This document shows, piece after piece, positions 1-22,914 of a stretch of 23,784 bases of DNA; position 1 is the first letter of the stretch; every line of letters begins with the position of its first letter. Under the pieces are notes generated by a model, which saw only the letters and a list, made by a program, of their open reading frames with translations, made no database searches and was not told the origin of the DNA. Made by a program: the position numbers and the translations under genes. The stretch covers positions 1 to 23,784 of the forward strand of contig BCIG01000049.1 in the NCBI GenBank assembly GCA_001599915.1, read 5' to 3'. Source of the DNA: Symbiotaphrina buchneri. Its lineage: Eukaryota > Ascomycota > Symbiotaphrinales > Symbiotaphrinaceae.

Positions 1-142
1 ACCATTTCTTGGTTGCAGAGGGTTTGCTTTCTGCGATTTGCTCATGTTGCTGGAGGAGATTGATCGATAGCCAGCTGACAAGCAGGACAGTAGCTACCCC
101 GATGCCGACGGTGGCTCGCGAATAATGTCGAAGTGGCACCAT
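1..142 (-). CDS. N-terminus of a type II membrane protein (partial, cut by window edge)
   Basis: The reverse strand from 142 reads MVPLRHYSRATVGIGVATVL and on for 47 residues before the window ends. A short basic N-terminus is followed by one hydrophobic stretch at about residues 11-30 (TVGIGVATVLLVSWLSINLL) and then a polar Gln/Glu/Ser/Lys-rich stem. That is the signal-anchor layout of Golgi type II enzymes and other single-pass proteins. The catalytic part is outside the window, so the family is unknown. The neighbouring sugar transporter and glycosyltransferases make another glycosylation enzyme a reasonable guess, but this is inference only. The start was chosen because it is the ATG directly preceding the anchor. 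A non-coding stretch of about 1.2 kb lies upstream. Confidence 0.55.
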   Translation of the reverse strand, partial: MVPLRHYSRATVGIGVATVLLVSWLSINLLQQHEQIAESKPSATKKW

Positions 143-1331
143 CGTCGGTAATGCGAGCGAGGCGGGTTGAGCGACCCTGAAGCAACGAATTGAGGTTTCT
201 CTTTTTTTTTTACCTGACGAAGACACTGGGGCTCAGCCAGAGACATGGAGAGCGAGGTATACATTATGCGAAAGGCTGCATACCGTCAGGTTGTATGTCT
301 TGTAAAGCATACGGTAAAGCTGTCTTGTGTTTCTGAAGGCAGCAGGTAAAGGTACGAAGTCCACCATCGGGGATTTTCGACCATCTGGGCAGCCGGCTCC
401 GTGGTCCCTGGTTCTTGAGAAATCCAAAGTGGCTGCTTCCAGCCGCTCTTCAGCTGTGGATAGTTCCTCGCTGGCACTTTCCAAGCACGATGTCGTACTA
501 CCCAGACGCGAGCCTCCGTGCCCGTACAGAAGTTGTGCCCCACGCGACCACTTGCCTAGGAGAGAGTTACGCAAAGTACCTGGATCTTCGCTCTGCCGTC
601 CAGCATTCAGTGGCTGACGCCAAGCAGAAAGTTAAACGGAGACTTGAAATCTCCCTGTCTGGACTGTAATCGACCAGCAGGTGGCTGTATTGGCGTTCGC
701 CGGTCTCATCTGGATTGAAGCAGAAGATTGTGGACAAGCAGCTTCCAGAGCGGAAGCCACATTTTGATTGTTCCTGTCGGGATACGGGGAAGACCACCGG
801 CAAGCAGGCGTCCGAGACATGCTTAGCACCTTTCCCCTTGGCTCTCGCTACAAGCATACAGGGGTAGCGTACCTTCCACACCTTAGTCCCGAATGGAAAG
901 TATGGAGTAAGCTTTAGTCTTGAACCTAGATTGATTGACGGTTCCTTTTCCTCGAACGGTCGGTGGGTCATAGCGCGCGCATTTACACCACACCGAGGCT
1001 TCTGGCAAGCCCAGCCCTCAGCTGGAGCAGAACATCCTCTCGATATCATTACAGGTTACAGGAATCAATACAGTATCATGATGACACAAGAATGAGCCGC
1101 AGGCTGGCCCGCTTCAAATCATTAGCGGCTCACGCCTCCTGAGAGGGTTTGAGACTGTTGAGGCTCATACATTCATAATCTGGACAATCGAGCTTTTATC
1201 GTCTTGAGCTTGTCCTCAGCTAGTTAATACAGCGATTGACCCTACATCTACAACAATAGGACCAATTGTTTCATGGAACCAAGCTACATGGATCGGAAGC
1301 ACAGGACTGTAGAAAATAAACGAGTATTCAT
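143..1331. other. Intergenic region, no supported gene
   Basis: This stretch lies between the partial gene's start and the 3' end of the transporter gene, both on the minus strand. It should hold the promoter of the partial gene. Open frames here (for example minus 1049-567) show no recognisable domain, membrane segment or splice structure. A T-run lies near 200-210. I see no repeat or RNA gene. Confidence 0.6.
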
Positions 1332-2550
1332 CTAAAGCTTCAATCTAGTCTCCACAGACCGTTGCACGGAATACCTAAAGACCTTTAGCAAGAGTTCCAT
1401 AACCCACAAAGGACTCACCCACCCAACGATACCCATTATGGCAATACCAGCTCCCAGGATACTCATAGAGTTCACTGAGCGGCCTCCATAGAGCCAACCA
1501 AGCGCAATGATAATGATGGACTTAAGATGCCCTACAACTGTCCCAATAACGGGACCGGCAGAATTTACCATGGCGAACTGTGACAGGTTCACAAGCCCGG
1601 CCAACAACCCGCTCTATCAACCCGGTAATATCAGTGCATGCCTTAAATGGCAAAGTAAGCGAACATACCAGACATATCATGCTCCACTTGCTCAATGGTA
1701 GATGAGACCACTCTGGCAGCTCATCCGTAAAAAGTGATGCACCTGCAATTAGCAAAGCTGCTTGTGGGAGCTGATTATACAGCAACTGCATGCTGTTTAC
1801 CTGCAGCCTCTCGTGATAACGAGTGATCAGGATACCGAAGACGGAGCTGACCAGCACGCCAAAGAACGCAAAGAAGACGCCCAGACCCGTCGTGGGGTTT
1901 GCAACCGCCGAGGATTCCCCATCGAAATACACCACCATCGCCACACCCACACAAGAAGGCACCAACGCTAGGACCGACCTGCCAGACAGCCGTGCCCCGT
2001 AGAGCGCGAAGTTGAGCACCGCCGTGACGGGCGTCAGCAGGATGCGCACGATCTGGTGGAAGATGATCGATGAGAATGCGAGAGAGAGGTTCTGCAACAC
2101 CGTACTTGCGCCCATGGTCAAGGCGAGCGGGATCGCGGCGCCCAAAGGTGCGCGCTTGGGCTGAAAGAGCCCGATGCCCGGCCGCGAAGCCACGTACAGC
2201 GAAAGGAAACTGACGCAGAAGTGGAAGGCGGCAAAGGTCGACTGGCTCTGCCGGAACGAGTGGTCGTCAAATATCACTTTGTTGACGTAGACCTGGGCGC
2301 ACCGCGGGTTTGGTCAGAAGAAGAGCGCGGAATCATGGACTGTATGGATGATGCGACGTACGATGGAGACTGTAGAGAGAATATTCAGGGTGATCCATAG
2401 ACGGGCACCACGTCCACGCTTAGCATTCTCCCCGAGATGTGGCACGAAGCCCTTTTCAATGTCTTTGTCGGGCCTCTCTAGTACGTTTTTAGAGATGTCA
2501 ATAAGCTTCGATGGTTTCTTGACGGGAGCCGTCAATGCAGAAGTTGGCAA
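1332..2550 (-). CDS. Nucleotide-sugar / triose-phosphate transporter family protein (DMT superfamily, SLC35-like)
   Basis: Three exons are read: 2550-2362, 2292-1669 and 1613-1332, with introns of 69 and 55 nt (GTACGT..CAG and GTATGT..TAG). The joins restore family sequence: LNILSTVSI joins VYVNKVIFDDHSF, and MICL joins SGLLAGLVNLSQF. The protein is about 364 aa, normal for the family. Visible hallmarks are NKVIF after the first membrane helix, FAAFHFCVSFLSLY, the QNLSLAFSSIIFHQIVRILL stretch, and a C-terminal GHLKSIIIIALGWLYGGRSV. The residues after the first 45 are largely hydrophobic helices, about ten. The family exchanges nucleotide sugars or phosphorylated sugars across Golgi or ER membranes; the substrate cannot be read from sequence. 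An extra 36-nt GTGAGT..AAG segment near 1419-1384 could be a third intron; removing it keeps the frame. The GT34 and GT8 neighbours fit a role as lumenal sugar-donor supplier. Confidence 0.88.
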
Positions 2551-3657
2551 GGAGTTGAAATTGGATCGTCAGCCAGACGAATAGGGGATGATAATGAAGG
2601 CTGACAAGTTTGGTGAGAACCACGACATCTTCTTTCGATAGGCAGGTGACTTTGAAAGATCAATGCTGCTTATTGTTGGTGTAAAGAGAGATGCTGGGGC
2701 GGAACAAGTGACTGAGATATCGATTTATTTCCGGCACCACTATCTCCAAGCGCCAGAGGGGGTTTCGCCCGTCACAATTAATTACGCAACGGTCATCACC
2801 ATTTCGATTTCTTTGCCTTTACAGAACAGCATAACACGACTCCCGCAGGGTTGATCGGAGGTACAGCACTTTACTCGGTATGGACATACGGTCCGACTCG
2901 AGCTTCTTAGCGGGAACTGAGATGGTGTATCTTCAATCCTCGAGATACGCCATGGAATTCAAGGCAATGGGCTGGCATCACGGGCCGAGAAAGTTTGTGC
3001 CCAAGTCTTTGTAGAACAGCTATCCTGCGCTCATCTGAACCAGCTCGGCTGAGAACACGGTAAGCTACGAGCGCTCAGATATCTAGGGAATCCATCTGAA
3101 AGAACCGTCTGGAGGAACCCTGTTGGGACGCCAAGGATGGGCGTCAACTTCTTTTTCCCAGTTTAGCTCAGGGGGAAGCAAGAGGGTGGCTCGGTTCTAT
3201 GGCATGGCGTGGCATCTTGGAGACGAGCTCGCTGCTTTTGTTGCCTGCCAAGCTGTTCTCAATGATCTGCCGTCTTCCACCCTAAGAATGAACTTGTTGC
3301 GCTGGGCGTTTTACACTGCAACAGACCGCCGCTTTCTATGCGGACTCGTTTAGGCAACATAATCTAGAAGTCACAGGGCTGATGGTGTGAGTGCCCAGAC
3401 TAATCAATGTCTGAGGTGCTCTTCTCAGCCGTGTTGTGGACCTGTGGCGGTCATTGTGAACTACCTTAGCCATCAACGGGCGACGAGATGTAGCCCAGCT
3501 ATCAGCGCCCTGTTTCGAACCCAGTCCATCTCTGTGCTGCTCTTCGCACTCGATGGGGAGGACTTCTGTCACCCTTGGCAGGTCTGTTGGTGTCAGTCCT
3601 GGGTGGGTAGACAGCACCAGGAGGATCTCGTAACCTGCCCGCCTTTACTACGCAAGA
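2551..3657. other. Divergent intergenic region between transporter and GT34 genes
   Basis: About 1.1 kb separates two genes that point away from each other, so it probably carries both promoters. Small open frames on the plus strand (2663-2854, 3123-3353) lack domains or splice context and I do not call them. I see no repeats or RNA genes. Confidence 0.55.
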
Positions 3658-4956
3658 ATGCATGTCTTCAGTCGGTCGACGGACAGGTATCCATCCAGCC
3701 ATGCCAGTGAATCAGGCAGTTCATGGCTATCGGGATCGTGGACACTGCAACGCAAACACAAGAAAAGGCTGCATCGATTCGGGTTCGTCCTGGCAATATG
3801 TCTTGTGTGGGCATATCGCCTCCGAAACATCCTGCCGTCCTCGTCGTCGCCCGACATGATCATGGCCGCGCTGAAGCACTCCTGGTCGCCAGAGATCCGC
3901 GACGGCCTCTCTCAAGAAGTCCTCACTGCACCAACTCAACCAGCTGCTCCCATGGCTGAAGAAGAGGCCTCCTCCTCTGCCCCTAGTGACGACGACCAAG
4001 CGTCTTCTCCAGACCCTGCCCCGAACACACTAGTCGACGGGCGGCGAAGCGCTCGCATTGGCAAAGTCACAATGCTATTCGGCGAGCCAAATCCCATCTA
4101 CGAGCGCGCGCTGGCCCTGCACGAGGTACACAATGCGCGGATGGGGTACCGAATGTTCGTACTGCGCGAGCAGATCCTCTCCGGCTTATGGTCGAAGCTC
4201 GCGTACCTGAGCGCGCTGGTGGCGAATGAGCTTTCGAAACCTCAAGACGAGCGATTGGAGTGGCCCTTGTAGGGCACATCTGTCCCTGTTTCCCAGTCAG
4301 GGGGCTCCGCATTCTAATCTCATTCATACTGTAGATGGCATGACGCCGACGTCGTCATCATGAACCCCAACGTGCCGCTGGAGGTGTTCCTCCCGCCGCC
4401 GGAATTCGATCATATACACCTGCTGTTGACCGATGACCACAACGGGCCACATGACGGCGTGTTCCTGCTGCGCGTCTGCGAATGGTCCTACCGGCTGCTG
4501 GCGGCCGCAGTCTCGCTACACTATTTCAGGCCCGACGTCGTCCTCAAATACAGCGAGCAGTCGGCGCTTGAGATCCTGACCCACGAAGAGGTGCGTATAA
4601 CATGTCCAGTCCATTCTTATCCTGGCCGGAAAGAGCCCCAATGCTGAAACAGAACCTCCCTCCAATAATAGGGCCGATTCAATCATTCATCCGTTCACGT
4701 CCCGCAACGCTGGTTCAATGCCTTTTGTCCTAGGACGCTGGATGCGAATAACTACCGGCCGCATCACGCACGCCCCGGCAGCTTGCTAATTCACTTTGCA
4801 GGCAATAGGGACGGGCATCGGCTGGAGCGCATGCAGAGCTGGCTAGATCGCGCCGAGGCCCACACGCCCGAGTGGGAACTGCCACTGGAGGAGACGGAGT
4901 ATGTGAGTGAGGTTAGGAAGTTCTGGGCGAGCAAGACAAAAGATGCTGCTACATAG
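3658..4956 (+). CDS. GT34 family galactosyl/mannosyltransferase (GMA12/MNN10-like)
   Basis: Three exons are read: 3658-4268, 4335-4590 and 4672-4956, with introns of 66 and 81 nt. They give about 383 aa. A short N-terminus leads into a signal anchor (about residues 40-55, FGFVLAICLVWAYRL), then an acidic Ser/Pro stem, then the GT34 domain. Visible family motifs are RIGKVTMLFGEPNPIYERAL, YRMFVLREQIL, the metal-binding DxD in LWHDADVVIMNPNVPLEVFL (about residues 207-209), DDHNGPHDGVFLLRV, HVPQRWFNAF, LLIHFAGN and a closing W-rich segment. Splicing rebuilds the DxD motif across the first junction. GT34 enzymes are Golgi alpha-galactosyl- or alpha-mannosyltransferases acting on cell-wall and secretory glycans; linkage and acceptor are not readable here. 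The usual NG-N-G loop reads NGPHDGV, a mild variation. It is convergent with the GT8 gene, with 150 nt between them. Confidence 0.92.
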
Positions 4957-5106
4957 GATATAGTGTTTCCGGATGGATCGATAATCATTTATATTTATAA
5001 GTATATATGTTCGGTACTGAGAGTCAAAGACATACTTCTGTTGTAGGGAATAGATATTTGCCAACTCATTCGTTCTATTTACTGTGCAATTACTGCCGCG
5101 TACGTA

Positions 5107-6231
5107 TCACAACAAGCCGCCTGTTTTCTCCCTGGCCGCATCTGCCCCTTCGAAAAACCCTTCCATCTTCCACCTACTCCTGAGCATAATGTCACGCAGC
5201 TCCGGCTCCGGCCCGGCGTCCCAGAACTTCGTATGCAGCGACGCCGCGCCTGCCTTAAAATCTCGAAAAGTGGCCCAATTGACATTCCACGTGGGATCTA
5301 ACTGCTTCCATGGCATGTTTCCGTCACGGCGATGCACATAATTCCAGAGGTTCTGCTCGGGGTACTTGCTGTCGAAGCGGTCCGGCAGCGCCGCCACAGT
5401 CAGGTAGTGGCGGAACAGATCAACGGACGGCTGGAAGAGGACAAAGCCGGCGTTGACTGCACGGCCAGCCCGCGGTGGCCATGGGTGGTCGTAGCCACCC
5501 TGACCCGAGACGCCGGCGAAGACGTACGACGACGGCTGCTGGCCCTCGTCCGCCTTGCGCGCCGCCGTATCGTTGAAGCTGTAGCTTAGCTGGGCGGCGG
5601 GGTCGTCGAAGATGGCGTCCAGGCGTTTGGCGATGAGCATGTCCGAGTCGAGGAATAGTACTCGGTCGTACTGGGTCAGAGTGAACATGTGCAGCTTGGA
5701 CAGCACGCTGTTCCAACGGCTGCGAGAGGCCTGGATCCAGGGGAAGTCGATGCGTGAGATTGGCAATATGGAGGCGCCGTCGAGGGCGAGACGAGCTCTC
5801 TTCTGTTCAGGCACGTCCTCGGTGACCAGGACAAGGAACGGGATGGAGGAATTTGTGCGCGTGATGGGATCATGTAGCAGCTGGTAGGCAAGCATGCGTG
5901 TGGCGGTGAAGTAGTTGTTATCCGTGTCGTCCTGATCGCTGGTAAGAAAGGCAGCATAGGCGTATTTTGACGATGTACGGCGGTTGTGGACTGTATGGAG
6001 CCCAGTGATGGCCCATGTGGCGCCGTCGATGTTGAGGCCCAGTCTTGCTGCAAGCACAATAGTGGCCAGGATTCCAGTTGCCACAACAATGAAGCGCCTC
6101 ATACGAGCATTCAAAACATCCCCGTGAGGCCGAAGACCGCTGTCAACACGACCTTTGGCCATCTTGATGGTCGTGTAGAGTTTGTACGAGGTGAAGCTGG
6201 ATGGATCAAACAGAGTCACCCAAACAACCAA
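5107..6231 (-). CDS. GT8-like nucleotide-diphospho-sugar transferase (type II membrane glycosyltransferase)
   Basis: One uninterrupted frame of 374 aa. Domain marks are SKYAYAAFLTS at the start of the catalytic region, KLHMFTLTQYDRVLFLDSDM with the DxD at residues 195-197, NAGFVLFQPS, EQNLWNYVHRR, DPTWNVNW and a late LHTKFWD. This pattern matches the glycogenin/GT8 fold and fungal GNT1-type enzymes, which use UDP-sugars in the Golgi. The membrane anchor is RRFIVVATGILATIVLAARL at about residues 45-65. Met24 (6162) or Met44 (6102) would give a more typical short cytosolic tail than Met1, so the true start is uncertain. The gene lies tail to tail with the GT34 gene. It is not glycogenin itself, because it has a signal anchor and lacks the long glycogenin C-terminus. 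The donor and acceptor sugars are unknown. Confidence 0.87.
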   Translation of the reverse strand: MVVWVTLFDPSSFTSYKLYTTIKMAKGRVDSGLRPHGDVLNARMRRFIVVATGILATIVLAARLGLNIDGATWAITGLHTVHNRRTSSKYAYAAFLTSDQDDTDNNYFTATRMLAYQLLHDPITRTNSSIPFLVLVTEDVPEQKRARLALDGASILPISRIDFPWIQASRSRWNSVLSKLHMFTLTQYDRVLFLDSDMLIAKRLDAIFDDPAAQLSYSFNDTAARKADEGQQPSSYVFAGVSGQGGYDHPWPPRAGRAVNAGFVLFQPSVDLFRHYLTVAALPDRFDSKYPEQNLWNYVHRRDGNMPWKQLDPTWNVNWATFRDFKAGAASLHTKFWDAGPEPELRDIMLRSRWKMEGFFEGADAAREKTGGLL

Positions 6232-7500
6232 GAATCCTAGTGGACGTAGGACCTTCCCAGGTGTCTGGCGAGGACCTGGAAGCTCGATCTGAACGAGCAG
6301 CTGAGACAGACACTTGTAATCCTTATTGGCTCATCTGCGAAAGTCCACCATGAAGTGGCGGCTCCAAACGTGTCCTAGAACTCTCTGCCTCTCCACATCG
6401 GTCTTTCAGCTGTGCGTCCGAGAGCGGTGTCTATCGGACTTTGCCCCAATAAGGGAATTGGCCCTTGTTAGCTGTCCAGTGCAGCGGTCTGTGTCGGTTG
6501 GTCAGTACTTGCACAGGTCCAAAGTGCCGTCGGCTGAACAGAGATGTATCCAAAGCAAGCAAGAGCTCCTTCTGAACACGGCTGCGCTAAATTAAAGCTT
6601 CCGATACAGCCGTATACGATGTCCAGCCGCTCTACAAGGAACTCCTTGGTTGCCGAAGTAAGTGCCAGTGTCCCAAGTACATCGAGGATATCACGGCTCG
6701 CGAGTTTTGGTGATTAATTGGCTCCCATTCTTCCAAAATGCCACACACCTGCCAAGGCTGTGACTGCCAAAAACGATGGCCGTGGTTGATAGCTGCAGGT
6801 CCGTTCGCCGTTGCAGCTGTCTACTGATCACCAACCCTTCGCCAAGGTTATGTGGCTGCTGCTACTCTTATCAAAGCAAAGTCACACTAACAGTTGTTTA
6901 TCTAGGGTTTAAGCTTTCCTGCCCAGCAGACGTCTGTCTGTGCACCCTTATCTGGACTTTGTAGACTTCTGTTAACGGGGAAGGGTACCGGCCTAGAATC
7001 GGAGAGTTTGCAAAGCCGAAGCTCTACATTTAGTTGACGGCGAGAAGTGTTGTGGGAATAGACTTTACTACTACCAGCCGCTGCCTCCCTATTCGCTGTA
7101 ACACTATCGCCATGTCGTCTCAATGCAGCAGTAAGGTAAGCGATGGCGCCACCAGCCAGACACCAGGTAGGGTCATCTGGTGGGTGCCACACACAGTGAG
7201 ACAGGAGGAACTGGGCCGTTAAGTCTACAAGCAAGTACTCATACTATCACAGTCTCGACTTGCTGGGCATGTGCAAGACAGCATTCCGGATGGGCTTTTC
7301 TTGGAATAGGCAGTGCGCCTCCACGGTACTTTACTCAAATAGGCGTTCGTGGCTTGGGCTAGTTCGGTAAGAACTGGCACTTTGGTCTCGCGGGGCAAGC
7401 GCCATGGCAAGCCCAAGTCGCTTCCAGAGCTAGAAACTACCTCATGGGGGGTGCTGTCGCGTGCTCTCTTTGGACGAGGAAGAGATGGGTGGGTGACTGA
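6232..7500. other. Intergenic region upstream of the GT8-like gene
   Basis: About 1.27 kb lies between the GT8-like gene start and the 3' end of the secreted-protein gene. Several small open frames occur on both strands but none shows a domain, signal peptide or splice structure. It probably holds the GT8-like promoter and the 3' UTR of the next gene. Confidence 0.55.
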
Positions 7501-8878
7501 TTATTGGGGGTTTTTGCGATGCCCCGCTCCCTTCGATATGGTACCTGTGATTGGGACTGGGAAATCTGCGAGTGTGATAAGGGGCATAATAGATTTATGC
7601 TTCCAAGTCGGCTGCGCCGTCTCTTCGGGCTCCTCGCACTCGTTCTCGGCACTTGGGTCCAACCCCGAGCCCGGTGTGCAGACCGAGGCTGTCGTGCTGG
7701 TAGTCTCTTCCTCGGTCTCGGTTGATGTGGTCGTTGTGGTAGTTGTGGCGAGAACGGTCGCGGGCGTGCTAGACGTCGTGGGAGGGATGGTGATGGGGCA
7801 GGGAAGCGTACTGGAGATTTCACGTCAGATACGGGTGGTTGGGCCAGTTGTGGTTATTAGTAGACTCCACTTACGAGCCGCTGATCACGGTTATAGTGAC
7901 ACTTGTTGTGATGGTCACCGTTCTGGTTACCGTCTCGGTGATCCACACCGTACGGGGACAGTTGTACACGGTCGTCGTCACGCAGTAGTCTTCGTAGACT
8001 GTGATTGTGTACACGCCATTGGTCGGTGCCCAGGTATGCGTCGAGTACGTCGCTGTGGTTGTGACCGTTGCAGTCGTGGTCGGTAAAGAAACCCAGGTCT
8101 CAGTATGCGGCACACACTTTCCTTTCAAACACCAGTTGATGCTGACAACTTGCCTGTACGTCGTCACCGCCGGCGCTGCAGGTGGGACAGCTGCGGGCGC
8201 CGGCTTGGGCTTCACGGCTGCGTTGCCCGGTGCTGAGCCTCCTGATGCTGGGCTCGGTGAGGCAGGTGCGATGCCGGCAGCGCACTCTTTGCAGAGTCCG
8301 CTGCCACCGTAGCCGGGGATCAAGAAAGGACCGATGGAGGCATATGGACAGGTGTAGTCTACTTCGTACACGATGACAGTGTACGTCTCTCCCGCCGCTG
8401 GCGAAGGCGCGGCCGGTGCCGGCGGCGTATATGCACCCGGCACCGGTGCAGGGGACACCCCATGAGGAGCGACTCTGGTGATGCTGTAGTTACCATGCCT
8501 GGCGGCGTAGACAGTGGAGGTGGCCAAAGCCGCAGAGAAGGTGACGAGCTGTTCTGTCTTCGTGATGGTACAGGATGTGATTGGTTTCTTGCCCTTCGCA
8601 GTGACATGGCATGGTATGACCGTCGACACCCAGGCGTACGTGGAGTAGGAGTAGTATGGCTTGCATTTACCATGGCCACATGTTGTTGTAGGCGTGCACG
8701 TCGATACGTTCTGGTATTGCTTGGTTACCTTGATCGGAGGTGGTTTCACGCTCTTCGGGCAGGCAGAACAAGGCTCAAACGTCGTGAGCACCTTTTTGGA
8801 TTTGCCAGCAGCGACGCCGTCGAACATGCCAACAAGGCAGAGAAAAAGAAGGAAGTAACGATATGGATGGAGCTCCAT
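7501..8878 (-). CDS. Secreted Thr/Pro/Ala-rich cysteine-containing surface protein (function unknown)
   Basis: Exon 1 is 8878-7875. A 64-nt intron (GTAAGT, branch CTAAT, acceptor CCAG) runs 7874-7811, and exon 2 is 7810-7501. The product is about 437 aa. It begins with a signal peptide (MELHPYRYFLLFLCLVGMFD, cut near VAAG at residue 24-25). Cysteine-bearing blocks alternate with Ala/Pro linkers: CTPTTTCGHGKCKPYYSY; an Ala/Pro linker; DYTCPYASIGPFLIPGYGG followed by SGLCKEC; a second Ala/Pro linker; and VYTITVYEDYC followed by a Thr-rich run. Exon 2 adds a Thr run, an acidic segment with CTPGSG and ECEEPEE, and a tail without a GPI signal. It is low in lysine and rich in potential O-glycosylation sites. 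I recognise no named domain. Among glycosyltransferase genes it could be a glycan carrier or cell-wall protein; that is inference. A further intron near the 3' end (GTACCA at about 7541) cannot be excluded. Confidence 0.75.
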
Positions 8879-10886
8879 GTTTCCAACTCCAGTATCAACT
8901 TTATTGAGAAACGAACGTCAGAGTATTGAAGCGTTCAAGGCAGCGAAGGTTATGACAGGAAGCGAGGCGGCGAGGATGGTTGTGTAAGAGTGATTCCCAT
9001 ATGCTCACAAGAGGCTTCTGATGCTGCGGTCCTTGTCGGTCAGCAATGTAGGAGACGGACCGAATAGGCATCAGTGTATGGGAAACCAAACGGTAGCGCC
9101 TATTTGACGACGCCAATGCCTTCATGAGGTGGGCAGTCCAAAGACCCCGAAGCTGCAACAAGTCCATGCAGGAAGCATACATGGCATACGCGCACAGAGC
9201 GAGAGCCTCCTAGGGTACAGTGCTATCAGCTCATCGTTTCACCTGAGGCGTGATGCCAACCATCGCTAATACACGAAGGCTTGCAATAGCATCGAGCCTT
9301 CGGAGAGCGATACGGATCGGCGATATCTCTCTCCATAGCTTCAGCTCACGATAGAGGTCCGTGACAACAGCGATCTCAGCCGAAAGCTAATGGAAGGCGT
9401 GGGAAACTCAGCGCAGTCACTGACGGTGATTTCGTACTTGGCCAGCTAGTGAAGCCACAGGAAGGCATTGCGGAACCCACGAATGCACTGAGTGGTCATG
9501 GCATTAGGGATTTGCGGTGGCCATTCGAGAATGAGACAGGGAGTAGATGTCGACATGTTGATCTGAGTGGAGACACCAAGATGATTTGTGAGACGCCACG
9601 AACGGCCTGGTCGAAGGTGGAACGAGAGCACACGATCTTGCCGAGCTGAAAAAGTGTCAAACCCAACCTCGCACGGCCGGATCGGCAAACATGAGAACGC
9701 CTCAAGGTCGTTGTGACTGCATCTGGATCCATTTGTCAATTAGTGGTGGTGCGAACGAAAAGGGGTGACAGGAAGCTTGCTGTCCGTAGGAGGGAAAAGA
9801 GAAGACATAAGAAAAAAGTTCACGGGAAATGTCAACAATGAATCTCGCAGTGCTATTGTCTTGGCCACTAATCCTGAACAGGGCATAGAGCATGCGCCGA
9901 TTTCCCCCATCTCGAGTCCAGAACGGTACAAATACGCAGTACTCGTACAACGGGTGTGTAGAGCGAGTACCTGTACTTGACGGACATGTACTCGTACAAA
10001 GCTCCCGTCTCGGCATTATGCTTGTCAAGGCGCAGGCAGCCACATCCCGCTGCTTTTACGACCAAAGCTTTGCTGCTCCCCGTAGAATCAATCATAACTT
10101 TCACATTTTCCCTTGCAAGCCACTAAGCTCTCGGCACTTGAATTAGAAGGAGCTCGCGTGAGCAATACGAGGACTGCGATCAGATCATGGTGTCCAAGAC
10201 CAGCCAAGGCGGACACCCCGCCCTCACTATCAGTCCTAAGCCACTATCTGCCGGGTGTCCATCTTCTTAGTCCACCTGATGTTGACTCGCTATAGTAGGA
10301 TAAAACGCTGCTTCAGCGGAAAAGCCTCCTCGGTTGCTCCAAAAATCCAATCTACCTCCAAGATCAGAGCACTGCACATCACAAGTAGAGTAGCGAAGCC
10401 ACAATGGAACCGAACATGAGCAGAAGGAATTGGTACTGGTTGAGTCCACACATAGCAGATCAAATCACCAATCTCGGCAATCCGGCTTGACCCAGATAGG
10501 AGCGGACTCAACAAAACCAAGAAGCATGTCTCTCTAGCCCGGGAGCATGAGATGCTGCAACAATACGAGAGCTAAAGCCTGCTAGTCTCAAGCCGGGCTT
10601 CATGGTGGATTTCCTCCGGCTCATGGCACGGCAAAAGGTCCGCTGAATGTAAAAGCTTGTTTCTGTTGGACCCTGTTAACCATCAGTTGCAAGTCACCCA
10701 GGCTTGTTGTTGATCGAGTGAGGAAATCGTACAGTATTCTGGCCATGACCCCTGTGCATGCGGCTCCGTGATGCCGACCGGCGTTCGCCAGAGATAGCAT
10801 ACGGCAAATGCTATAGTAGAGACACGATTGACTTGCTACAACACCCACTGAGCGATGTGTCGCGTCATCTCTTAACTTAGATCAAG
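8879..10886. other. Large divergent intergenic region (2 kb), no supported gene
   Basis: This region separates the start of the secreted-protein gene from the start of the Stealth gene. The open frames within it are short and have no recognisable domain or consistent splicing. It is long for an intergenic region in this window and may hold regulatory sequence for both divergent genes. The only internal structure I see is the small repeat pair at 9939-9999. Confidence 0.5.
9939..9999. repeat. Pair of 12-bp direct repeats, each internally repeated
   Basis: GTACTCGTACAA occurs at 9939-9950 and again at 9988-9999, starts 49 nt apart. Each copy contains GTAC twice, and further GTAC copies (GAGTACCTGTACTT) lie between them. 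The pair sits in the divergent region, roughly 0.9 kb upstream of the Stealth gene. A role as a protein-binding site is possible but unproven. Confidence 0.4.
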
Positions 10887-13389
10887 ATGCCAATCCGTGG
10901 TAATCGCTTCTCAAGATCCGAGAAGTCTCATCCTACTCAGCTATCATTACTTGATACCGCTTATACGCCCAAATGGCCACGGACACGACGAAAGCGCGTC
11001 CTACAAGCGATAGCGATGGCGATCCTCCTTGCCTGCTGGAGCACCAAATTACTGCCCTGGCCGCAGCAGAACTCTCGAAACGGTCCATGGTCTGTAGCCT
11101 CGCTGGTAGCGGCCAGGCAGCAGGACTCGAAGACCGACATTGTTGGGATGGAGGTGCCTGATTCTGAGGTTCTAGAGCCTCGAGAGGAACCGCACGGTCC
11201 AGCCAAGATCGAAGAAGACAATTCCATCGTGCCGCCAGCTGCCGAGCGATCTTTTACATCAACGGCACGCCACGAGGAGATTCGACGTCATAGGATACAT
11301 CAGCCGAAAGAAGGACAGCGAGCCTTGCCGGAAACAGCCCGTGAAGCTGATCAAGCTGCTCAAGGCACTATGGAAATGAGCAGTCAGGAAGTGAGCAGCC
11401 AGGAAGTTAGCAGCCAAGAAGTGAACAGCCAAGAAGTGAACAGCCAAAAGGCTGAAAGCCAAGTCGTGCTCTCCTCCATCGCAAGCCACGACGCAATCGA
11501 CGCGGCGCTTGCACATTCACAGGCAGCGTCGACTAGGCCGTACGAGTTTCCCAGCTACGATGACTACATGGCGCTCAGTGAAGCCGCCGAGGCCTTGCCT
11601 GACATCATCCACGTTCCCTTAGAAGAGGCCACCAAGGATACCGTCCTAGCAGGCTGGGAGGACGAGTGGGTTGCTGATGCAGAATTCAATGCTGACAGAT
11701 GGGGGATATTGGAAGAGCCCAAGATTGACTTCGTCTATACGTGTATATTATAAGGATCGCCCTCCCTGCGAGAGCCACTGGCTGATCTCATCATAGGGGT
11801 GAACGGCTCCGAACAGGCATTTCTCGACACGATGCTAGATTACGAGCTCAACTCGACACTGAACGACGGCGACGGCAGCTGGATCCAATCGCACCGCTCG
11901 AACCGCTACCGGGACTGGGACGAGCTTCGGTTCTCGCTCCGGAGCGTCGAATTGCATGCGCCGTCATTCCGCAATCGAATACTGCTGCTGGTCAATGCCG
12001 TGAAGAAGGATCCAGAGTACGGGAGACAGATCCCCGTTTGGCTCAACGACGACGCACAGACGCGTGATGTTGTCCAAGTCCTTTCGCAGGAGGATTTCTT
12101 CGACGACGAGCATAAAGACTGCTTACCCACATTCAACTCGCTGACGATTGAGAACCAGATTTTCAATACCTTCCGATGTAGACAGGGTACGTGTCCTGCA
12201 TCTCTAAAGTCATCATCACACATGTTGTTCTAACGAGACCCAGCTCTTCGCCTTATCGGACGACATGCTCCTCGGGCGTCCGCACGCCGCTTCAGACATA
12301 TACTCACCTCTCTTCGGCCCAACGCTAGGCTTCAAAACCAACGGCTACAACACGATCAACCCGCCCACCGACATCGACGCCCGGCGGTTCGGCGAGAAGC
12401 CGTACCTCATCTACACGTCCTGGCTACTGAACCGACGCTTTGGAAGCCGCAAACGGAAAGGCCAGGTGCACTTTGGCAAATCGCTTTCCCGCAGCGTGAC
12501 ACGCGAAGCCATCAATGCCTTCGCGCGGCCGGCCTTGCGTAGCGCCTGCCAGCGCTTCCGAGGCGAGACGGGCTTCCAGCTGTATTCCTGGTATGCTGCG
12601 TTCCACTACACCATCGAACGCCACCGCGAGGCGCTGCTGTGGAGCTATATCATGCTCCGCGCGGACGTGAACGGCGATGGGAATCTGGACTGGGAGGAGC
12701 GCCAGCAGGTCATGATGGAGTTGACTGAAGGCATGGAGAATGAAGGCAAGACCGCCTTTCGGGAACGGATTTTCTATCAGGTGGGTCCGCTGCATGAGAC
12801 AGCGGGACTCAAGCCACCGAAGGTGAATGTCGACGTGCTATGGACGTCCCTCGACGGGCCCGTGACGATCAAGGATATCGAGTGCTACGAGTTCGACGTC
12901 AATGAATGTCTGGCGCGCGGGTTTTCGACGCCGTACCCGGACATGAGCTTCGCGAGCCCCGTGTTCTCCACGGCGGCCATCCTCGATCGTGCTGCAAGGC
13001 AGGACGTCAAATGCGGCGACTGCCTCATCAAATTGCTGCTGAACCGCGTTCCCAAAGGGCTCTCTCCGTTGCTTCCCCCCGCAGAGACGAAAGCTAAAGC
13101 AAGGCGGACCGTGGTCAAGGCGCTGACGCGCTACCATTATACGGTCGTGGAGCCCGACGCGCTGTTCGTCATGGTCACGGATGCGGAGCAGGTCAAGCAT
13201 ACGTTGGTGAAGAGGCTGGTCAAGGGAGATCGCAAGGTCGGCCAGTTGTGCTTGAACGATGATGTCTCCGAGGATATGGATGAGAAGGATATCAAGAAGG
13301 TGGAGAAGGTCATGTCGGAGTTGTTTGAGGGGCTGTTTCCTCAACCGAGTAGATTTGAGATTGTGTCGGCACCTGGGGAGGAGCAGTAA
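10887..13389 (+). CDS. Stealth-family sugar-phosphate transferase with EF-hand (one frame break in the given sequence)
   Basis: Exons 10887-11742, 11797-12186 and 12244-13389, introns of 54 and 57 nt; about 796 aa. A signal anchor (about residues 37-55) is followed by a Ser/Gln/Glu stem with a five-copy pentapeptide repeat. Stealth regions are clear: CR1 IDFVYTWVNGSEQAF, with the Trp rebuilt by splicing; CR2 RYRDWDELRFSLRSVELHAP, QIPVWLNDD, LPTFNSLTIENQ and LFALSDDM; then CR3/CR4 with an EF-hand loop at 12664-12699 (DVNGDGNLDWEE) and YEFDVNECL. Stealth proteins, including fungal Xpt1 and animal GlcNAc-1-phosphotransferase, transfer sugar-1-phosphates to glycans in the secretory pathway; the sugar is not predictable. 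Exon 2 as read ends in the wrong frame: after IFN(T), the next frame gives PSDVDR, which runs through a consensus donor straight into LFALSDDM. So two bases appear missing, or one extra, at 12165-12172. It could be a sequence error or a recent pseudogene. Confidence 0.85.
11379..11453 (+). repeat. Coding minisatellite: five 15-bp units in the Stealth gene stem
   Basis: Five tandem 15-nt units, starting AGCAGTCAGGAAGTG, encode SSQEV, SSQEV, SSQEV, NSQEV and NSQKA at about residues 165-189. Units differ by one to a few bases, and the last is the most diverged. The unit is a multiple of three, so copy-number change would lengthen or shorten the lumenal stem without altering the frame. Confidence 0.85.
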
Positions 13390-13785: not shown

Positions 13786-15525
13786 CTATTGTGCAGGCTC
13801 CGTCGGTGTGGACTCTCCCTCTGCAGCTCCCTCTGCGGCTCCACTGCTCGCCGTACTTGGAACCCAGGGTCTTGACACCCAGAAATCCCTCAGATCCTTG
13901 AGAATCAAATGAACAGGCCACGCGGTAGCCCGTCTCGACTCGAGCAGGAACTGCTCCAAAGCACTTCGCTGGTTCCGTTGCGTTAAATATCTGCCACCTA
14001 TGAAAATCTTCAGTCGTGCTCGGTATATGAGCTCCTCCGCATGACTAGAAGGTACTTACAGAAGGCCAGAGGACCATAAGCATTGACTCTCGCAGCGACG
14101 TTATCATTAGTCCAGGCTAGGCCACAGATTCTTATAGCTCGATCTTCGGCAAACGCAAGTTGTGCCTGCGTGGTATGGCCCTTTGCAACCGCTGGGTCGT
14201 ATAGGGCTAGTAATATCTCGCCGACGGCGAAGTACGTGTGTGCAGCCACTGCGAGCCGGGAAAAGAGTTAGACAAGGTCAATAGCGGTTGGGGAGTTTGA
14301 CATACCGTGCCAGGGCTGGAGCATCCACAAGGACGGGAATGGATTCCCTTGCTTCGGTGCCGAGCTGAATAGCTCAAATGTATAAGGCAGGGTATTTTTC
14401 CAAGCACCCAAATCATTAGAAAGGGTTTGATATTTCGCGATCCGGTCTTTCTGTGTGGTACGGTCGGAAGGATCTCGGAAAGAGAAATTGATGATTTGAG
14501 CCAGGAGGTAGCTCATTTGATTTGCACGCATATCGGCAGCTTGACTTCCCGCGCGAAACGTGTCGAACATGTTACCTATCCGCACCTGTTTACGGCATTC
14601 AAGGGCGACTGTGATCTCTCCTCGTAGATAGTTCCAGGCACCGGCCTGGAAGAGCCCATGACTGCGGAAGTCAATTGGTCCGTTGATAGCATAACGGTAA
14701 GGGGTCAGAACGTGGCGTTGCGCAGGTTCTATTTTGCCTTGATTAGAAGCAGGATATGCAATCAGGACATCAGATTCCACTCACTATCCAGAATTTCATA
14801 GGACCGCAGCAAGCAAGTGGCGGCGAGGGCGTTTTCATGAGATCTTGTCTCCAACCTACTCATGGACAGCGGCAAATCCTCCATGCATGCGGTGTGAAAT
14901 GCGGTAGCCACTTCCCGCATGGCTGGGTTGGCCTTCGTCATATGCAAGGCAGAGAATGCAATGATGGATTTAAACAAACTCGGGCTTACCAGAGCTTTCT
15001 CTGGAATTATCGTGCCGAATGAGCGCTGGGAATCATTCAAGTCAAACCACGGTGCCAGAGCGTGTAGATAATTCGTGAAGACCTCCGCTATCCGAACATC
15101 TGCAAGTGCTTCCTGAGGAGGCAGAGCGGCTAATGACTCTGCCCAATGACGAGGCCCCTGAGATACGGGTTGGGAAGATGACCATTGTCCAATGAGTGTT
15201 CCTTTCGGACTGCTGGTAAGGTCTAGGTTTTCATCATGAATGAAATCCTTCATGCCTCGACTGCTGCGCTGCGTCGAAGGCAGGGTTGCTTGAGCTTGCA
15301 CGGCATCTGTAGGCTGCGGAGGCGGACTTGTTCGCCGACGTCTCCCTGGAGTTATTGTTACGAACTTCCAGCCCGCGGGTAGTCGGACACAATCTCTTCC
15401 AGAGCCAAGGCATCTCTGACACACAGGGAGCCTGCCATCGCCTACTCAGGACCAGTTAGCCCCATAGCTCACGGGCACTGGGGGTAGACATCGCACATCC
15501 TAGCTTCCTTTTAAGACATGTTTCA
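13786..15525 (-). CDS. Zn2Cys6 fungal transcription factor (5' end uncertain; frame break in zinc cluster)
   Basis: The body is clear in four exons: from 15424 to 14785, 14737-14306, 14248-14060 and 13997-13786 (introns 47, 57 and 62 nt). It includes CQRCLGSGRDC followed by WKFV, a basic linker GRRRRT, helical fungal-regulator sequence such as HALAPWFDLNDSQRSFG, LFKSIIAFSALH, AATCLLRSYEILD, GAWNYLRGEI and LQPWHV, and a C-terminal ALEQFL..TAWP segment. The first half of the zinc cluster lies upstream: a small exon at 15525-15497 reads ETCLKRKLGC, its first Cys probably completed from an earlier exon, and a 55-nt intron leads to CDGRLP at 15441-15425. Between that Pro and CQRC there is one nucleotide where three are expected, so the frame breaks at about 15424. 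It would bind DNA as a nuclear regulator; its targets may be the flanking glycan or sugar genes. The initiator ATG was not located. Confidence 0.78.
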
Positions 15526-15976
15526 CTGTTGTAATGTCTTAGCCACAGTGTTTGACAATCATGGTTCATTAGGGATCATTACCAACCTGCCGTGCTCCAG
15601 TCAGCTCATCCCTATATTTGAACGATGTCGAGATCCCGCAATACTCACTATTTTTGGCCGCGGCTCTCGGCATCCCACCGTCTGCAGTGGCTGAGTCTGA
15701 TGCTAGAGGTGGTTTAGAACGGGATTTGAGAGGTTCTATCTGTCAATCTAATGGGTAATGATAAGCATCATATGCGTAGATGACAATGAGTGTGGAGAAA
15801 GACTGCGGTGATGTTGTCGGTGAAGAGTTGGCCTTATGAAGGATTCTTTACCGAGCCTAGCTGTACGAGCAAAACCGTTAGCGCAGTAGCGCAGGAATAT
15901 TTGGCGCTTTTGACGCATTTTGCCTTCCCAGAATAGCTGCCAAGTCGCAGCTAGAGAGCTGCAGCCGAGCCACTCT
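15526..15976. other. Upstream region of the transcription factor gene, up to the Stealth relic
   Basis: This should contain the missing first exon and promoter of the Zn2Cys6 gene. A candidate donor that could supply the first zinc-cluster Cys lies near 15580 (..TTG followed by GTAATG on the minus strand), but no convincing ATG precedes it in frame. Nothing else is recognisable. Confidence 0.4.
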
Positions 15977-16211
15977 TCAGGCCTCGTTTCCCGTGTCAAC
16001 ATAAGAATTCTTCGTAGCAGATTTGGGAAGCAGCGAACGGCCTCGGTTCTGGAAAATGCGATCGACCATAAGCAGGAAGTTTGACAGGTTCATCGGGAAC
16101 ACGGGGCTCGCGAAGCTCATGTCCGGATGCGGCGTCGAGAACCCGGGCGCGAGACATTCGTTGACGTCGAACTCGTACCTTTGGCAGGTCGTTTTTGTGA
16201 TCGATACATGA
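15977..16211 (-). pseudogene. Relic of a second Stealth-family gene (inverted relative to the intact copy)
   Basis: The minus strand at 16177-16097 reads YEFDVNECLAPGFSTPHPD and continues MSFASPVF. This matches the intact Stealth gene at 12886-12966 in 25 of 27 residues and 75 of 81 nucleotides, counted by eye. Upstream residues VSITKTTCQR may extend the similarity weakly to about 16211, where a stop precedes. Downstream the frame stays open to a stop at 15977-15979, but the protein diverges quickly, with only a GRSLLPK segment reminiscent of the intact GLSPLLP. No CR1, CR2 or EF-hand counterpart exists nearby, so this is a small remnant. Most differences are silent or third-position changes, suggesting the parent was a functional paralogue before loss. 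It lies beyond the transcription factor gene in opposite orientation, implying a former inverted pair. Confidence 0.8.
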
Positions 16212-16534
16212 CATTTCTGGGTCCACTAGCATGACGTACGAACGAGCTTTCGGCTAGGGGTTGCCTAATCAGCAGCGCGAAACGCGCCGTTCAAGAATCG
16301 AAAACTTCAGCAAAAAACTGGGAAACTTCCCCGGAGGCCACTTGCATTTTGACGGAGGGGATAGATGCACTACACTCATGACTATAGGTTGGCCATGTAA
16401 CGAACGAAGCCTGTCACCCAAGCTTTCTCAATCAGACCAGATGGTATCTGTACATCAACCCCATAAAGGCAAAATATATTCATCTCAAATCTCACTAGCG
16501 ACAGACAATCTCCCTCAAACCAGTCAGAACAGTC
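16212..16534. other. Intergenic region 3' of the sugar transporter gene
   Basis: A stretch of about 320 nt contains no supported gene. It probably includes the 3' UTR of the transporter, whose stop is at 16535. No repeat or RNA gene is visible. Confidence 0.55.
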
Positions 16535-18503
16535 TCAAACAACTTCTTGACGCGTCGCACTCTCAACCCTATTGACCGTCTTCTCCTCTCCCAAGGCAGC
16601 CTCATGTCTCTTTCTCACAGCCTCAACACGCTCTTCAAATGTACCGCCAACCTTGTGGCTCCTCCACGGCGGGATGTTCTCCTCAAACAAGATATCGATC
16701 TCTTCAAGAGACCTACCGACGGTCTCGGGGTACAAGAAGAACACCCATAGACCCATGACGAAGCAGAACGTCCCGAAGATCATGTACGTCTTCCATTGGA
16801 TGTTGGTGGAGGACGGAGGCGTGAACTGTGCTAAGGCAAGGTTGAAGATCCAGTTGCCGGCCGCACTTAAGCCAACGCCTTTTGCACGGTACTTGAGCGG
16901 GAACACCTCGGAGGCGTAGATCCATGCGGCGGGTGCCTAGGGTGCGTTTGTTAGTCTCCAGATCGCGCAGAGTGATGCAGTGCAAATTTTCAACTTACCC
17001 AGGTAAGACCGTAGACTCCAACAAAGATGTAGGCAACTGCGATGACGCCCTTTGCCGGTGCACCACTGATAGACCATCTGAGGATATCATTGCCTAGTTA
17101 TGTAAGCTGGAGTACGCCGAGTGGATCTGCATGGGAATGTTACCATCGACTGAATCGACGTGATGCCCATATGAAGCCATCAGTGCACCGCTGATGAAGT
17201 GCAGGATACTGCAAATGAAGGCGCCAGTGATCAAAAGATCCCGTCTGCGGATCCTGTCAATTATCGGAAGCATTCCTCCTGTCGTTACGAGGAAGATGAC
17301 GTATTGGATAATCGCGGAGGTGAGAGAACTGTTACCCTACGGAGCTGTTAGTAGGTCGAGGTGGAGATGTGTAAACGAGATACTGACAAGGCCGGCCATT
17401 TCGAAGATATACACAAGATAATACAGCATGACGTTGCCGCCAAGTAGCTGTTGCCTGCGACGTTGTTAGTCATGCAAGAGATGTGGTGATTGAGGGAGAC
17501 TCCAGTGCTTACCAGATCTGTACGGACACACCGCACAACGTCCGTTTCCATACTTTACGGCCAAACAGACCGAAGAAGCCAACTTGTTTCTCCTGATGGG
17601 CAAGATGAGCAGCTTCCTTGACTATAGCGCACGATGTCAGCAGATGCCATAACAAAACATCGCAATGATGAGTTATACGATACCTTCCTCAAGCTCCGCC
17701 AGAACAACCGGGTCCTCGTGATTGCCCTTGGCGTGAAGATGGGCCAGTGTGTCCACACACTCCTCCCACCGATCCTTCTCAGCGAGCCAACGCGGGCTCT
17801 CAGGAGAGAAGAAAATTGCCGTAAAGAGGACAAACCCCGGAATAGCCTGGAGGCCCCAAGCAATCCTGAAGGAAGCTGTCCCGTTGATATATGTGCAGCC
17901 GTATGAGATGAGGCACATGACGAGGATACCCCACTCGATGGCCCATTGCTGGATGCCGACAATGCGGCCAGGGATTCGGCTTGAAGCCAGTTCGGCGAGG
18001 TAAACGCAGACTTGCGACGATGTGATGCAGACTATAATGGCCCCATGTCAGCTTCCAAGGCATGCACACGAGGGTTAGGTCAAGGCTTACTAGCAAGTCC
18101 GCTCACGATACGGCCGACGACAAGATGACCTACGTTCTGTGCGCTGCACTGGAGGACCGCGCCAATGACCCAGATGACGGATGCGACCTGCAGGACGCGG
18201 CGTCGTCCCAGGTGATCACAAAGGAAGCCGGAGGCGATAGCACCGACGAAGGATCCGCCGCTCATGGACGCGGTTATACCCCCCTGCCTCGTGGAGCGGG
18301 GATGACCGAAGTATTTGAGGTACTGATCGCTCCCGATCCAGGCGCTCATGGAGGAGATATCGAAGCCGAATAGGGCACCGCCGACGGTGCCGAAGGCGGC
18401 GAGGACTGTGGTTCACGTTGGTATCAATGGTCCCAGGGTAATGTGAAGTGTAGGAGTAAATGGTAGAGTGCGACGTACTGTAGATGTTCCAGATTGTATA
18501 CAT
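16535..18503 (-). CDS. MFS sugar porter (hexose/pentose or polyol transporter)
   Basis: Eight exons with compatible phases: 18503-18479, 18405-18091, 18031-17684, 17621-17513, 17454-17388, 17336-17144, 17093-16999 and 16936-16535. They give 517 aa, the normal sugar-porter length, with introns of 50-73 nt. Motifs include GGALFGFDISSMSAW in helix 1, CDHLGRRRVLQ in loop 2-3, RIVSGLA, YLAELASSRIPGRIVGIQQW, the sugar-porter marker SPESPRWL, QIWQQLLGGNVMLYY in helix 7, APAAWIYASEVFPLKYRAKG and PETVGRSLEEID at the end of helix 12. It would import sugars across the plasma membrane by proton symport. The exact sugar is unknown; the nearby L-arabinitol dehydrogenase makes a pentose or related sugar plausible by inference. 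The tiny first exon (MYTIWNIY plus one base) relies on the GTACGT donor at 18478. The gene appears intact. Confidence 0.92.
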
Positions 18504-20381: not shown

Positions 20382-20421
20382 AATAGTGCTTGGTCGAAAT
20401 AGTTTACTGTCTGAGACTCCT

Positions 20422-20447
20422 CAAATAACAGTGACAAATAACAGTGA
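20422..20447. repeat. Perfect tandem duplication of 13 bp upstream of the SDR start
   Basis: CAAATAACAGTGA is repeated head to tail without mismatch, 41-66 nt before the SDR initiator at 20381. It lies in the probable 5' UTR or core promoter. An exact copy suggests a recent duplication or a doubled binding site. Confidence 0.7.
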
Positions 20448-20691
20448 TCGTACTCAATGTCGCTTTGGGTTATTGCGTTTGCCCGGCAACAGGTTCGAGG
20501 GGAGAGTTTTGAATACATATATAACGCCGCTCGGTTCTAGAAGGTCCGAATTTCCAATCACACCATGATCCGTTGCATGCAGTGCTGCAAATTTCCGTCC
20601 CCATTACTATGATTTCGTTCATCTCCGTAAGTGTCCCGTTACAATATGGCGTGGTCGTCCATCAACAATTGAGGCTTGCTGTGTTGCTGAT

Positions 20692-20699
20692 CGGATAAA
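20692..20699 (+). promoter_or_regulatory. AraR-like binding motif CGGATAAA
   Basis: CGGATAAA fits the CGGDTAAW consensus that I recall being reported for the Aspergillus L-arabinose regulator AraR. It lies about 311 nt upstream of the SDR start and 516 nt upstream of the L-arabinitol dehydrogenase start, so it could serve both. One eight-base match in 833 nt can occur by chance. Confidence 0.3.
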
Positions 20700-22912: not shown

Positions 22913-22914
22913 TG

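What the first reader, a model, noticed from the sequence alone, without database searches (positions are those of the whole stretch)
1..13389. Candidate glycan-assembly gene cluster built around a Stealth phosphotransferase
Within 13.4 kb lie a nucleotide-sugar transporter, a GT34 enzyme, a GT8-like enzyme, a Stealth-family sugar-phosphate transferase and a secreted Thr/Pro-rich protein; a further type II membrane protein begins at the left edge. No unrelated housekeeping gene interrupts them. This could be one pathway making a phosphosugar-containing extracellular or cell-wall glycan, possibly carried by the secreted protein. The families are identified from motifs; the joint function is inference. 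I am not aware of this exact combination being described as a cluster in fungi.
Basis: partly seen in the sequence, partly recalled or inferred. Interest (0 to 1): 0.75.

Follow-up and report, generated by a model that had tools for sequence, protein, structure and literature searches.

The report
Fungal Golgi sugar-transfer gene neighbourhood
This stretch of what looks like fungal DNA holds several genes whose products may build and phosphorylate a sugar chain, but whether they work as one unit could not be tested, and the gene for the phosphorylating enzyme appears to be broken in this sequence.

Summary
The gene content is real. Models and profile searches support an EamA/TPT-type transporter, a GT34 transferase, a GT8-like transferase (just under Pfam's cut-off), a secreted Thr/Pro-rich protein without a Pfam family, a Stealth sugar-phosphate transferase, and a cut-off membrane protein at the left edge. 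Stealth passes cut-offs for CR1, CR2 and CR4, and five of five key residues named for human GNPTAB are kept; one Asn of the NDD motif is Ser. A pentose-type catabolic neighbourhood follows on the right. After overlap correction no promoter word clearly exceeds shuffles. Best reading: a Golgi glycan-elaboration neighbourhood ending in a sugar-1-phosphate; plausible, unproven.

The parts
1..142 (-). Truncated N-terminus (47 aa) of a possible type II membrane protein
   Evidence: Open frame from an ATG at 142 with one hydrophobic stretch, maximum KD19 2.06. Too short for a family call.
1332..2568 (-). EamA/TPT-type transporter (candidate nucleotide-sugar transporter), 4 modelled exons; start codon unresolved
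   Evidence: Introns 1375-1422, 1614-1668, 2293-2361, all GT-AG; EamA 5e-10, TPT 1.5e-6 just under cut-off. No related PDB chain: one hit at E 0.36 to a dehydrogenase.
3658..4956 (+). GT34 glycosyltransferase, hydrophobic N-terminal stretch, DxD in WHDADVVIMNP, 383 aa
   Evidence: Introns 4269-4334 and 4591-4671; Pfam Glyco_transf_34 8.4e-11; weak PDB match to xyloglucan 6-xylosyltransferase 5, E 0.036.
5107..6162 (-). GT8-like glycosyltransferase, single exon, hydrophobic N-terminal stretch, DSD motif
   Evidence: ORF; glycogenin-1 E 2.4e-6; Pfam Glyco_transf_8 9.6e-5, 22.5 bits against cut-off 24.3.
7501..8878 (-). Secreted Thr/Pro-rich protein, 437 aa, 18 Cys, intron 7811-7874
   Evidence: Gene model and composition; no Pfam family at E 1.
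10887..13389 (+). Stealth sugar-phosphate transferase gene (3 exons), frame-interrupted
   Evidence: Introns 11743-11796 and 12187-12243; CR1, CR2, CR4 above cut-off; GNPTAB and CpsY matches.
11718..11852 (+). Stealth CR1 (IDFVYTWVNGSE), split by intron 1
   Evidence: Pfam PF17101 3.7e-9.
11904..12167 (+). Stealth CR2, first part (profile positions 1-73 of 108)
   Evidence: Pfam PF11380 7.2e-12.
12168..12243 (+). Tail of exon 2 and intron 2: the frame of exon 2 does not continue into exon 3
   Evidence: Of 10 introns found that join the two frames without a stop, 8 remove the CR2 core (FNSLTIE) and 2, of 40 and 46 bases, use a GC donor.
12244..12303 (+). Stealth CR2 remainder (LFALSDDMLLG; Ser in place of the Asn of the NDD motif)
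   Evidence: Aligned to LNDDIFLG of PDB chain 7dxi_A, though that stretch alone scores -2.7 bits.
12469..12606 (+). Stealth CR3 region with His and Arg matching H956 and R986 of human GNPTAB
   Evidence: Pfam CR3 E 0.0094, 16.3 bits against cut-off 24.2; alignments.
12661..12708 (+). EF-hand-like stretch between CR3 and CR4
   Evidence: Pfam EF-hand_5 E 0.034, below cut-off.
13237..13374 (+). Stealth CR4 (CLND)
   Evidence: Pfam PF17103 1.8e-9.
11372..11463 (+). 15-base tandem repeat coding for SQEV(S/N) units between the membrane stretch and CR1 of Stealth
   Evidence: Tandem Repeats Finder, 5.0 and 6.1 copies in two overlapping rows.

Best explanation
A Golgi glycan-elaboration neighbourhood of a filamentous fungus. 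The transporter brings a nucleotide sugar into the Golgi. The GT34 and GT8-like enzymes add successive hexoses (most likely alpha-linked galactose or mannose) to O-mannosyl or galactomannan-type chains. The Stealth enzyme transfers a sugar-1-phosphate from a UDP-sugar to a hydroxyl of the chain, making a phosphodiester. Shown here: family-level homology, catalytic motifs, gene order. Inferred: Golgi location, sugars, joint action, acceptor. In this particular sequence the last step may be lost, because the Stealth frame is interrupted.
For: Families and motifs. Stealth exons 1-2 match zebrafish/human GNPTAB chains (E 9.5e-10 to 3.9e-8) and CpsY (1.9e-6), exon 3 matches GNPT chains (2.2e-6 to 4.5e-5). 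Residues aligned with human R322, D408, H956, R986 and N1151 (5 of 5) and E389 are kept; numbering from PMC11418123 (passages), and the spacings counted by hand on the alignments agree with it. S. pombe Gma12/Gmh (GT34) and Otg enzymes act on the same glycans, and Otg1p is active when co-expressed with Gmh6p (PMC12892413, passages). Stealth enzymes transfer hexose-1-phosphate to sugar acceptors; the same passage cites a Cryptococcus xylosylphosphotransferase (PMC7729866, passages). Four of five consecutive genes of this class is unlikely by chance under the stated assumption.
Against: No synteny or expression data. No promoter word clearly beyond shuffles. The Stealth frame is broken. The N406 position is Ser, and N406A abolished activity in the human enzyme. 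CR3 and the EF-hand are below Pfam cut-off; GT8 is below cut-off and the transporter's substrate is unknown. The genes lie on both strands with gaps up to 2 kb.
Confidence: 0.45

Rival explanations
1. A loose or chance neighbourhood: separate Golgi enzymes acting in general N- and O-glycan processing that happen to lie together, with no common product.
For: All families except Stealth have many copies in fungal genomes (recalled, no call). Both strands are used. No promoter word clearly beyond shuffles. The secreted protein has no Pfam family, and a regulator and pentose-type genes follow directly.
Against: Runs of at least four in five glycan-type genes are expected only 5e-4 to 0.04 times per genome under the assumed gene fractions.
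Confidence: 0.3
2. A decaying cluster: a formerly working phosphoglycan locus whose Stealth gene has become a pseudogene in this lineage.
For: Stealth exons 2 and 3 are out of frame. The nearby SDR matches its profiles in two frames. Only half of a Zn-cluster motif was found for the regulator (E 0.1).
Against: GT34, GT8-like, the secreted protein and the LAD-like gene read through without interruption. Stealth, SDR and regulator regions show no RIP-like dinucleotide shift. An assembly error explains the Stealth break as well. The SDR break is not proven: 97 of 257 candidate introns join its two frames.
Confidence: 0.2
3. The sugar-phosphate is a pentose phosphate (as in the Cryptococcus xylosylphosphotransferase), and the locus is functionally tied to the pentose catabolic genes on its right.
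For: The right side holds a close relative of a solved L-arabinitol 4-dehydrogenase (3m6i, 653 bits), a sugar transporter and an SDR. A fungal enzyme transferring xylose phosphate is cited in PMC7729866 (passages).
Against: Pentose catabolic enzymes do not make UDP-pentoses (general knowledge), and no UDP-sugar-forming enzyme was seen among the ORFs searched.
Confidence: 0.05

Closest known systems
GNPTAB, UDP-GlcNAc:lysosomal-enzyme GlcNAc-1-phosphotransferase (PDB 7s6n/7sj2 zebrafish, 7s05 and 9bgg human, 7dxi insect; the last organism is recalled)
   Same: Order CR1-CR2-CR3-CR4, EF-hand-like stretch between CR3 and CR4, residues aligned with R322, E389, D408, H956, R986, N1151 (numbering from PMC11418123).
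   Different: No Notch or DMAP match at E 1; the CR3 match begins at residue 76 of exon 3; Ser replaces the Asn of NDD; the frame is interrupted here; a SQEV repeat lies before CR1.
Cryptococcus neoformans xylosylphosphotransferase (Reilly et al. 2009)
   Same: A fungal activity cited beside the Stealth reaction in PMC7729866 (passages).
   Different: Not compared: no sequence at hand, and the paper is not held. The gene name XPT1 and its place in the Stealth family are recalled.
S. pombe Gma12/Gmh (GT34) and Otg galactosyltransferases
   Same: A GT34 enzyme and a second transferase act on the same N- and O-glycans (PMC12892413, passages).
   Different: No Stealth enzyme appears in the passages seen. 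That Otg enzymes belong to GT8 is recalled. Not compared by sequence.
Bacterial Stealth enzymes of capsule synthesis (for example CpsY, PDB 8j2n)
   Same: Stealth core: the CR1-CR2 part matches CpsY at E 1.9e-6; CR1-CR4 described for CpsY in PMC10668966 (passages).
   Different: Here introns, an N-terminal hydrophobic stretch and an EF-hand-like stretch. Exon 3 gave no CpsY match at E 1.

Membership tests
Stealth family | CR1 motif IDVVYTF or very similar | tested here: met
   IDFVYTWVNGSE after intron 1; PF17101 3.7e-9; definition from PMC10668966 passages.
Stealth family | CR2, about 100 residues | tested here: inconclusive
   Profile 1-73 of 108 matched at 7.2e-12, above cut-off; the rest lies in exon 3 in another frame.
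Stealth family | CR3 | tested here: inconclusive
   16.3 bits against cut-off 24.2, but it aligns with GNPTAB CR3 including the His and Arg.
Stealth family | CR4 with CLND or CIND | tested here: met
   CLND; PF17103 1.8e-9.
Stealth family | Key catalytic residues (R322, D408, H956, R986, N1151 of human GNPTAB) | tested here: met
   5 of 5 in printed alignments; D408 rests on a stretch scoring -2.7 bits. N406, also needed in the human enzyme, is Ser.
Working Stealth gene in this strain | Uninterrupted coding frame | tested here: not met
   Only 2 GC-donor introns (40 and 46 bases) join the frames while keeping FNSLTIE. This bears on function, not on descent from the family.
Stealth family | Sugar-1-phosphate transferase activity | not testable with these tools
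   Needs an enzyme assay.
GNPTAB proper | Notch repeats and DMAP domain | tested here: not met
   No such Pfam match at E 1 in the two pieces searched, so I do not file it as GNPTAB.
GT34 | Glyco_transf_34 profile with DxD | tested here: met
   8.4e-11, 42.5 bits against cut-off 23; DAD in WHDADVVIMNP.
GT8 | Glyco_transf_8 profile with DxD | tested here: inconclusive
   22.5 bits against cut-off 24.3; glycogenin-1 2.4e-6; DSD present. Hence 'GT8-like'.
Nucleotide-sugar transporters (DMT superfamily) | EamA/TPT profile | tested here: met
   EamA 40.2 bits against 28.2; TPT 28.3 against 30. Superfamily level only.
Nucleotide-sugar transporters (DMT superfamily) | Transport of a nucleotide sugar into the Golgi | not testable with these tools
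   No substrate signature tested; no related solved structure.
Fungal biosynthetic gene cluster | Conserved linkage in other fungal genomes | not testable with these tools
   No whole genome held; viral and prokaryotic scans gave 0 relatives.
Fungal biosynthetic gene cluster | Shared promoter element | tested here: inconclusive
   7-mers in 5 of 5 regions: 0. 8-mers in at least 4: 0. 8-mers in at least 3: 7, reached in 20 of 200 shuffles. 9-mers in at least 3: 1, reached in 48 of 200. Nothing clear; low power.

The most novel reading that the evidence does not exclude
The locus is a fungal counterpart of a bacterial capsule locus: a dedicated, heritable set of transporter, two hexosyltransferases and a Stealth enzyme that makes a negatively charged phosphodiester-linked surface glycan in Pezizomycotina, possibly on its own Thr/Pro-rich wall protein, and that is gained, lost or broken between strains.
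Probability: 0.1. Interest if true: 0.75.

Novelty: new variant of a known kind. Interest (0 to 1): 0.4.

Why it matters
Wall charge, for example from mannosylphosphates, is named as one thing that sets the porosity and permeability of fungal walls (PMC12103488, passage). If the linkage is conserved, the locus would offer a small, testable gene set for how a filamentous fungus makes a sugar-phosphodiester glycan. The broken Stealth frame, if real, would make strain comparison a natural experiment.

Tried and rejected
Whole-genome search: no genome is held for this window. Scans for relatives with Stealth exon 3 and the GT8-like protein returned 0 relatives in 4 of 4; those collections are viral and prokaryotic, so this says little about fungi. 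AlphaFold2 of the GT8-like protein without an alignment gave mean pLDDT 39.3 and was not used. A first shared-promoter test gave 5 9-mers in at least 3 of 6 regions against a null mean of 0.4, reached in 0 of 100 shuffles, but two of its regions overlapped; with these treated as one the result fell to 1, reached in 48 of 200, so I rejected it. RIP as a cause of the breaks: Stealth, SDR and regulator regions have ordinary indices, but the secreted-protein gene (0.90 and 1.01) and the gap at 6.2-7.5 kb (first index 1.18) lie near or beyond thresholds that I recall for RIP; Thr-rich coding could explain the former. NCBIfam gave no match above cut-off for 3 of 3 proteins. The SDR break was checked for introns: 97 of 257 candidates join both frames, so it stays open.

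Ten paper searches listed no paper that I recognised as describing a fungal Stealth gene cluster. Listings were cut (for example 20 of 63, 15 of 2,791, 5 of 18,186, 12 of 1,237), several terms were too broad, and the library is open-licence only, so this is weak evidence of novelty. I saw passages of five papers and whole text of none. Two papers looked up by id were not held.
Full report
What was checked. The window looks fungal: short GT-AG introns, a fungal transcription factor domain on the right and a close relative of a solved L-arabinitol 4-dehydrogenase, 3m6i (that this chain is from Neurospora crassa is recalled). No whole genome is held for it, and the species was not identified.

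Gene models, left to right: the start of a type II-like membrane protein (142 to the edge, minus, 47 aa); an EamA/TPT-type transporter with introns at 1375-1422, 1614-1668 and 2293-2361 and no in-frame ATG found; a GT34 enzyme at 3658-4956 with introns 4269-4334 and 4591-4671; a single-exon GT8-like enzyme at 5107-6162; a secreted Thr/Pro-rich protein at 7501-8878 with intron 7811-7874; and a Stealth gene at 10887-13389 with introns 11743-11796 and 12187-12243. The transporter and GT34 are divergent with about 1.1 kb between them, GT34 and GT8-like converge with 150 bases between them, and the secreted protein and Stealth are divergent with 2 kb between them. Nine further ORFs, of the 61 listed, were taken from gaps and overlaps: 0 of 9 has a Pfam match at E 0.01.

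Families. GT34 passes its curated cut-off (8.4e-11); the transporter passes for EamA and just misses for TPT; GT8 just misses (22.5 against 24.3 bits); the secreted protein has no family at E 1. PDB gives glycogenin for the GT8-like enzyme (2.4e-6), only a weak plant xylosyltransferase match for GT34 (0.036), and nothing related for the transporter. NCBIfam gave nothing above cut-off for 3 of 3 proteins.

Stealth. CR1 (3.7e-9), CR2 (7.2e-12) and CR4 (1.8e-9) pass; CR3 does not (16.3 against 24.2 bits). The CR1-CR2 piece matches zebrafish and human GNPTAB chains (9.5e-10, 1.8e-8, 3.9e-8), CpsY (1.9e-6) and 7dxi (4.8e-5). Exon 3 matches 7dxi (2.2e-6) and the vertebrate GNPTAB chains (4.2e-6 to 4.5e-5). 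PMC11418123 (passages) names five key residues of the human enzyme: R322, D408, H956, R986 and N1151. All five have the same residue here, as has E389. By hand count, H956, H959, R986, Q992 and N1151 fall on chain 7s05_B with one constant offset, and the spacing from R322 to E389 is right, so the numbering holds; D408 rests on the motif and on a 7dxi stretch that alone scores -2.7 bits. H959 is Lys here and Asn406 of the NDD motif is Ser. N406A abolished activity in the human enzyme, so the Ser is either a tolerated variant or a sign of lost function. An EF-hand-like stretch lies between CR3 and CR4, below Pfam cut-off.

The break. CR2 matches only profile positions 1-73 of 108 in exon 2; the rest, LFALSDDMLLG, is in exon 3. 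One search found 10 introns (35-400 bases, donors about 12051-12262) that join both frames without a stop. Eight remove the conserved CR2 core; the other two use a GC donor and are 40 and 46 bases long. The gene is therefore frame-interrupted in this sequence, by a real mutation or an assembly error, unless a very unusual intron is used. The nearby SDR also matches its profiles in two frames: adh_short 10-122 and 134-191, adh_short_C2 7-120 and 127-201. There the break is likely but not proven, since 97 of 257 candidate introns join both frames. For the regulator only half of a Zn-cluster motif was found (positions 14-31, E 0.1). Dinucleotide indices of these three regions do not suggest RIP; the secreted-protein gene and one gap are borderline against thresholds that I recall.

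Is it a cluster? If 1-3% of genes are of this class (assumption), three or more such genes among four neighbours of a Stealth gene has probability 4e-6 to 1e-4, and runs of at least four in five are expected 5e-4 to 0.04 times in 11,000 genes. That is suggestive, but post hoc and one-sided: the genes on the other side of Stealth are a regulator and catabolic genes. Scans of the viral and prokaryotic collections found 0 relatives in 4 of 4. A search for shared promoter words, corrected for overlapping regions, gave nothing clear: 8-mers in at least 3 of 5 regions were 7, reached in 20 of 200 shuffles, and the three other settings were at or below chance.

How it would work. In fission yeast GT34 enzymes add alpha-1,2-galactose and Otg enzymes alpha-1,3-galactose to the same glycans, Otg1p depending on alpha-1,2-galactose when co-expressed with Gmh6p (PMC12892413, passages). 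Stealth enzymes transfer hexose-1-phosphate to a sugar, and a Cryptococcus xylosylphosphotransferase is cited beside this (PMC7729866, passages). The simplest joint model is a Golgi-made side chain, built by GT34 and GT8-like with a sugar supplied by the transporter, and capped by a sugar-1-phosphate. Carriage by the secreted Thr/Pro-rich protein is possible and untested.

Verdict. Gene content confirmed, with corrections; joint function plausible and unproven; the centrepiece gene is interrupted in this sequence. Ten paper searches listed no such fungal cluster, but their listings were cut and the library is partial. Interest 0.4.

Noticed in passing
14000-22413: A different neighbourhood follows: fungal transcription factor (Fungal_trans_2), MFS sugar transporter and SDR, and a close relative of a solved L-arabinitol 4-dehydrogenase (3m6i, 653 bits). 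It looks like a pentose/polyol catabolic cluster.
   Followed up: partly
19500-20380 (-): The SDR gene matches its profiles in two different frames: likely a broken gene or an assembly error, though candidate introns exist (97 of 257 join the frames).
   Followed up: partly
about 15400-15560 (-): Only the second half of a Zn2Cys6 motif could be found for the regulator (Zn_clus positions 14-31, E 0.1); the first half may be degenerate or split by introns.
   Followed up: partly
11372-11463: 15-base tandem repeat coding for SQEVS/SQEVN units ahead of CR1 of Stealth, possibly length-variable.
   Followed up: no
22842-22913: tRNA-Cys(GCA) by ARAGORN; tRNA also by Rfam.
   Followed up: no
23221-23784 (-): Part of an O-methyltransferase-like gene (Pfam E 0.0059, below cut-off), cut by the window edge.
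   Followed up: no
7480-8878: Dinucleotide indices of the secreted-protein gene (0.90 and 1.01) differ from the rest of the window (0.69 and 1.23); Thr-rich coding may explain it.
   Followed up: no
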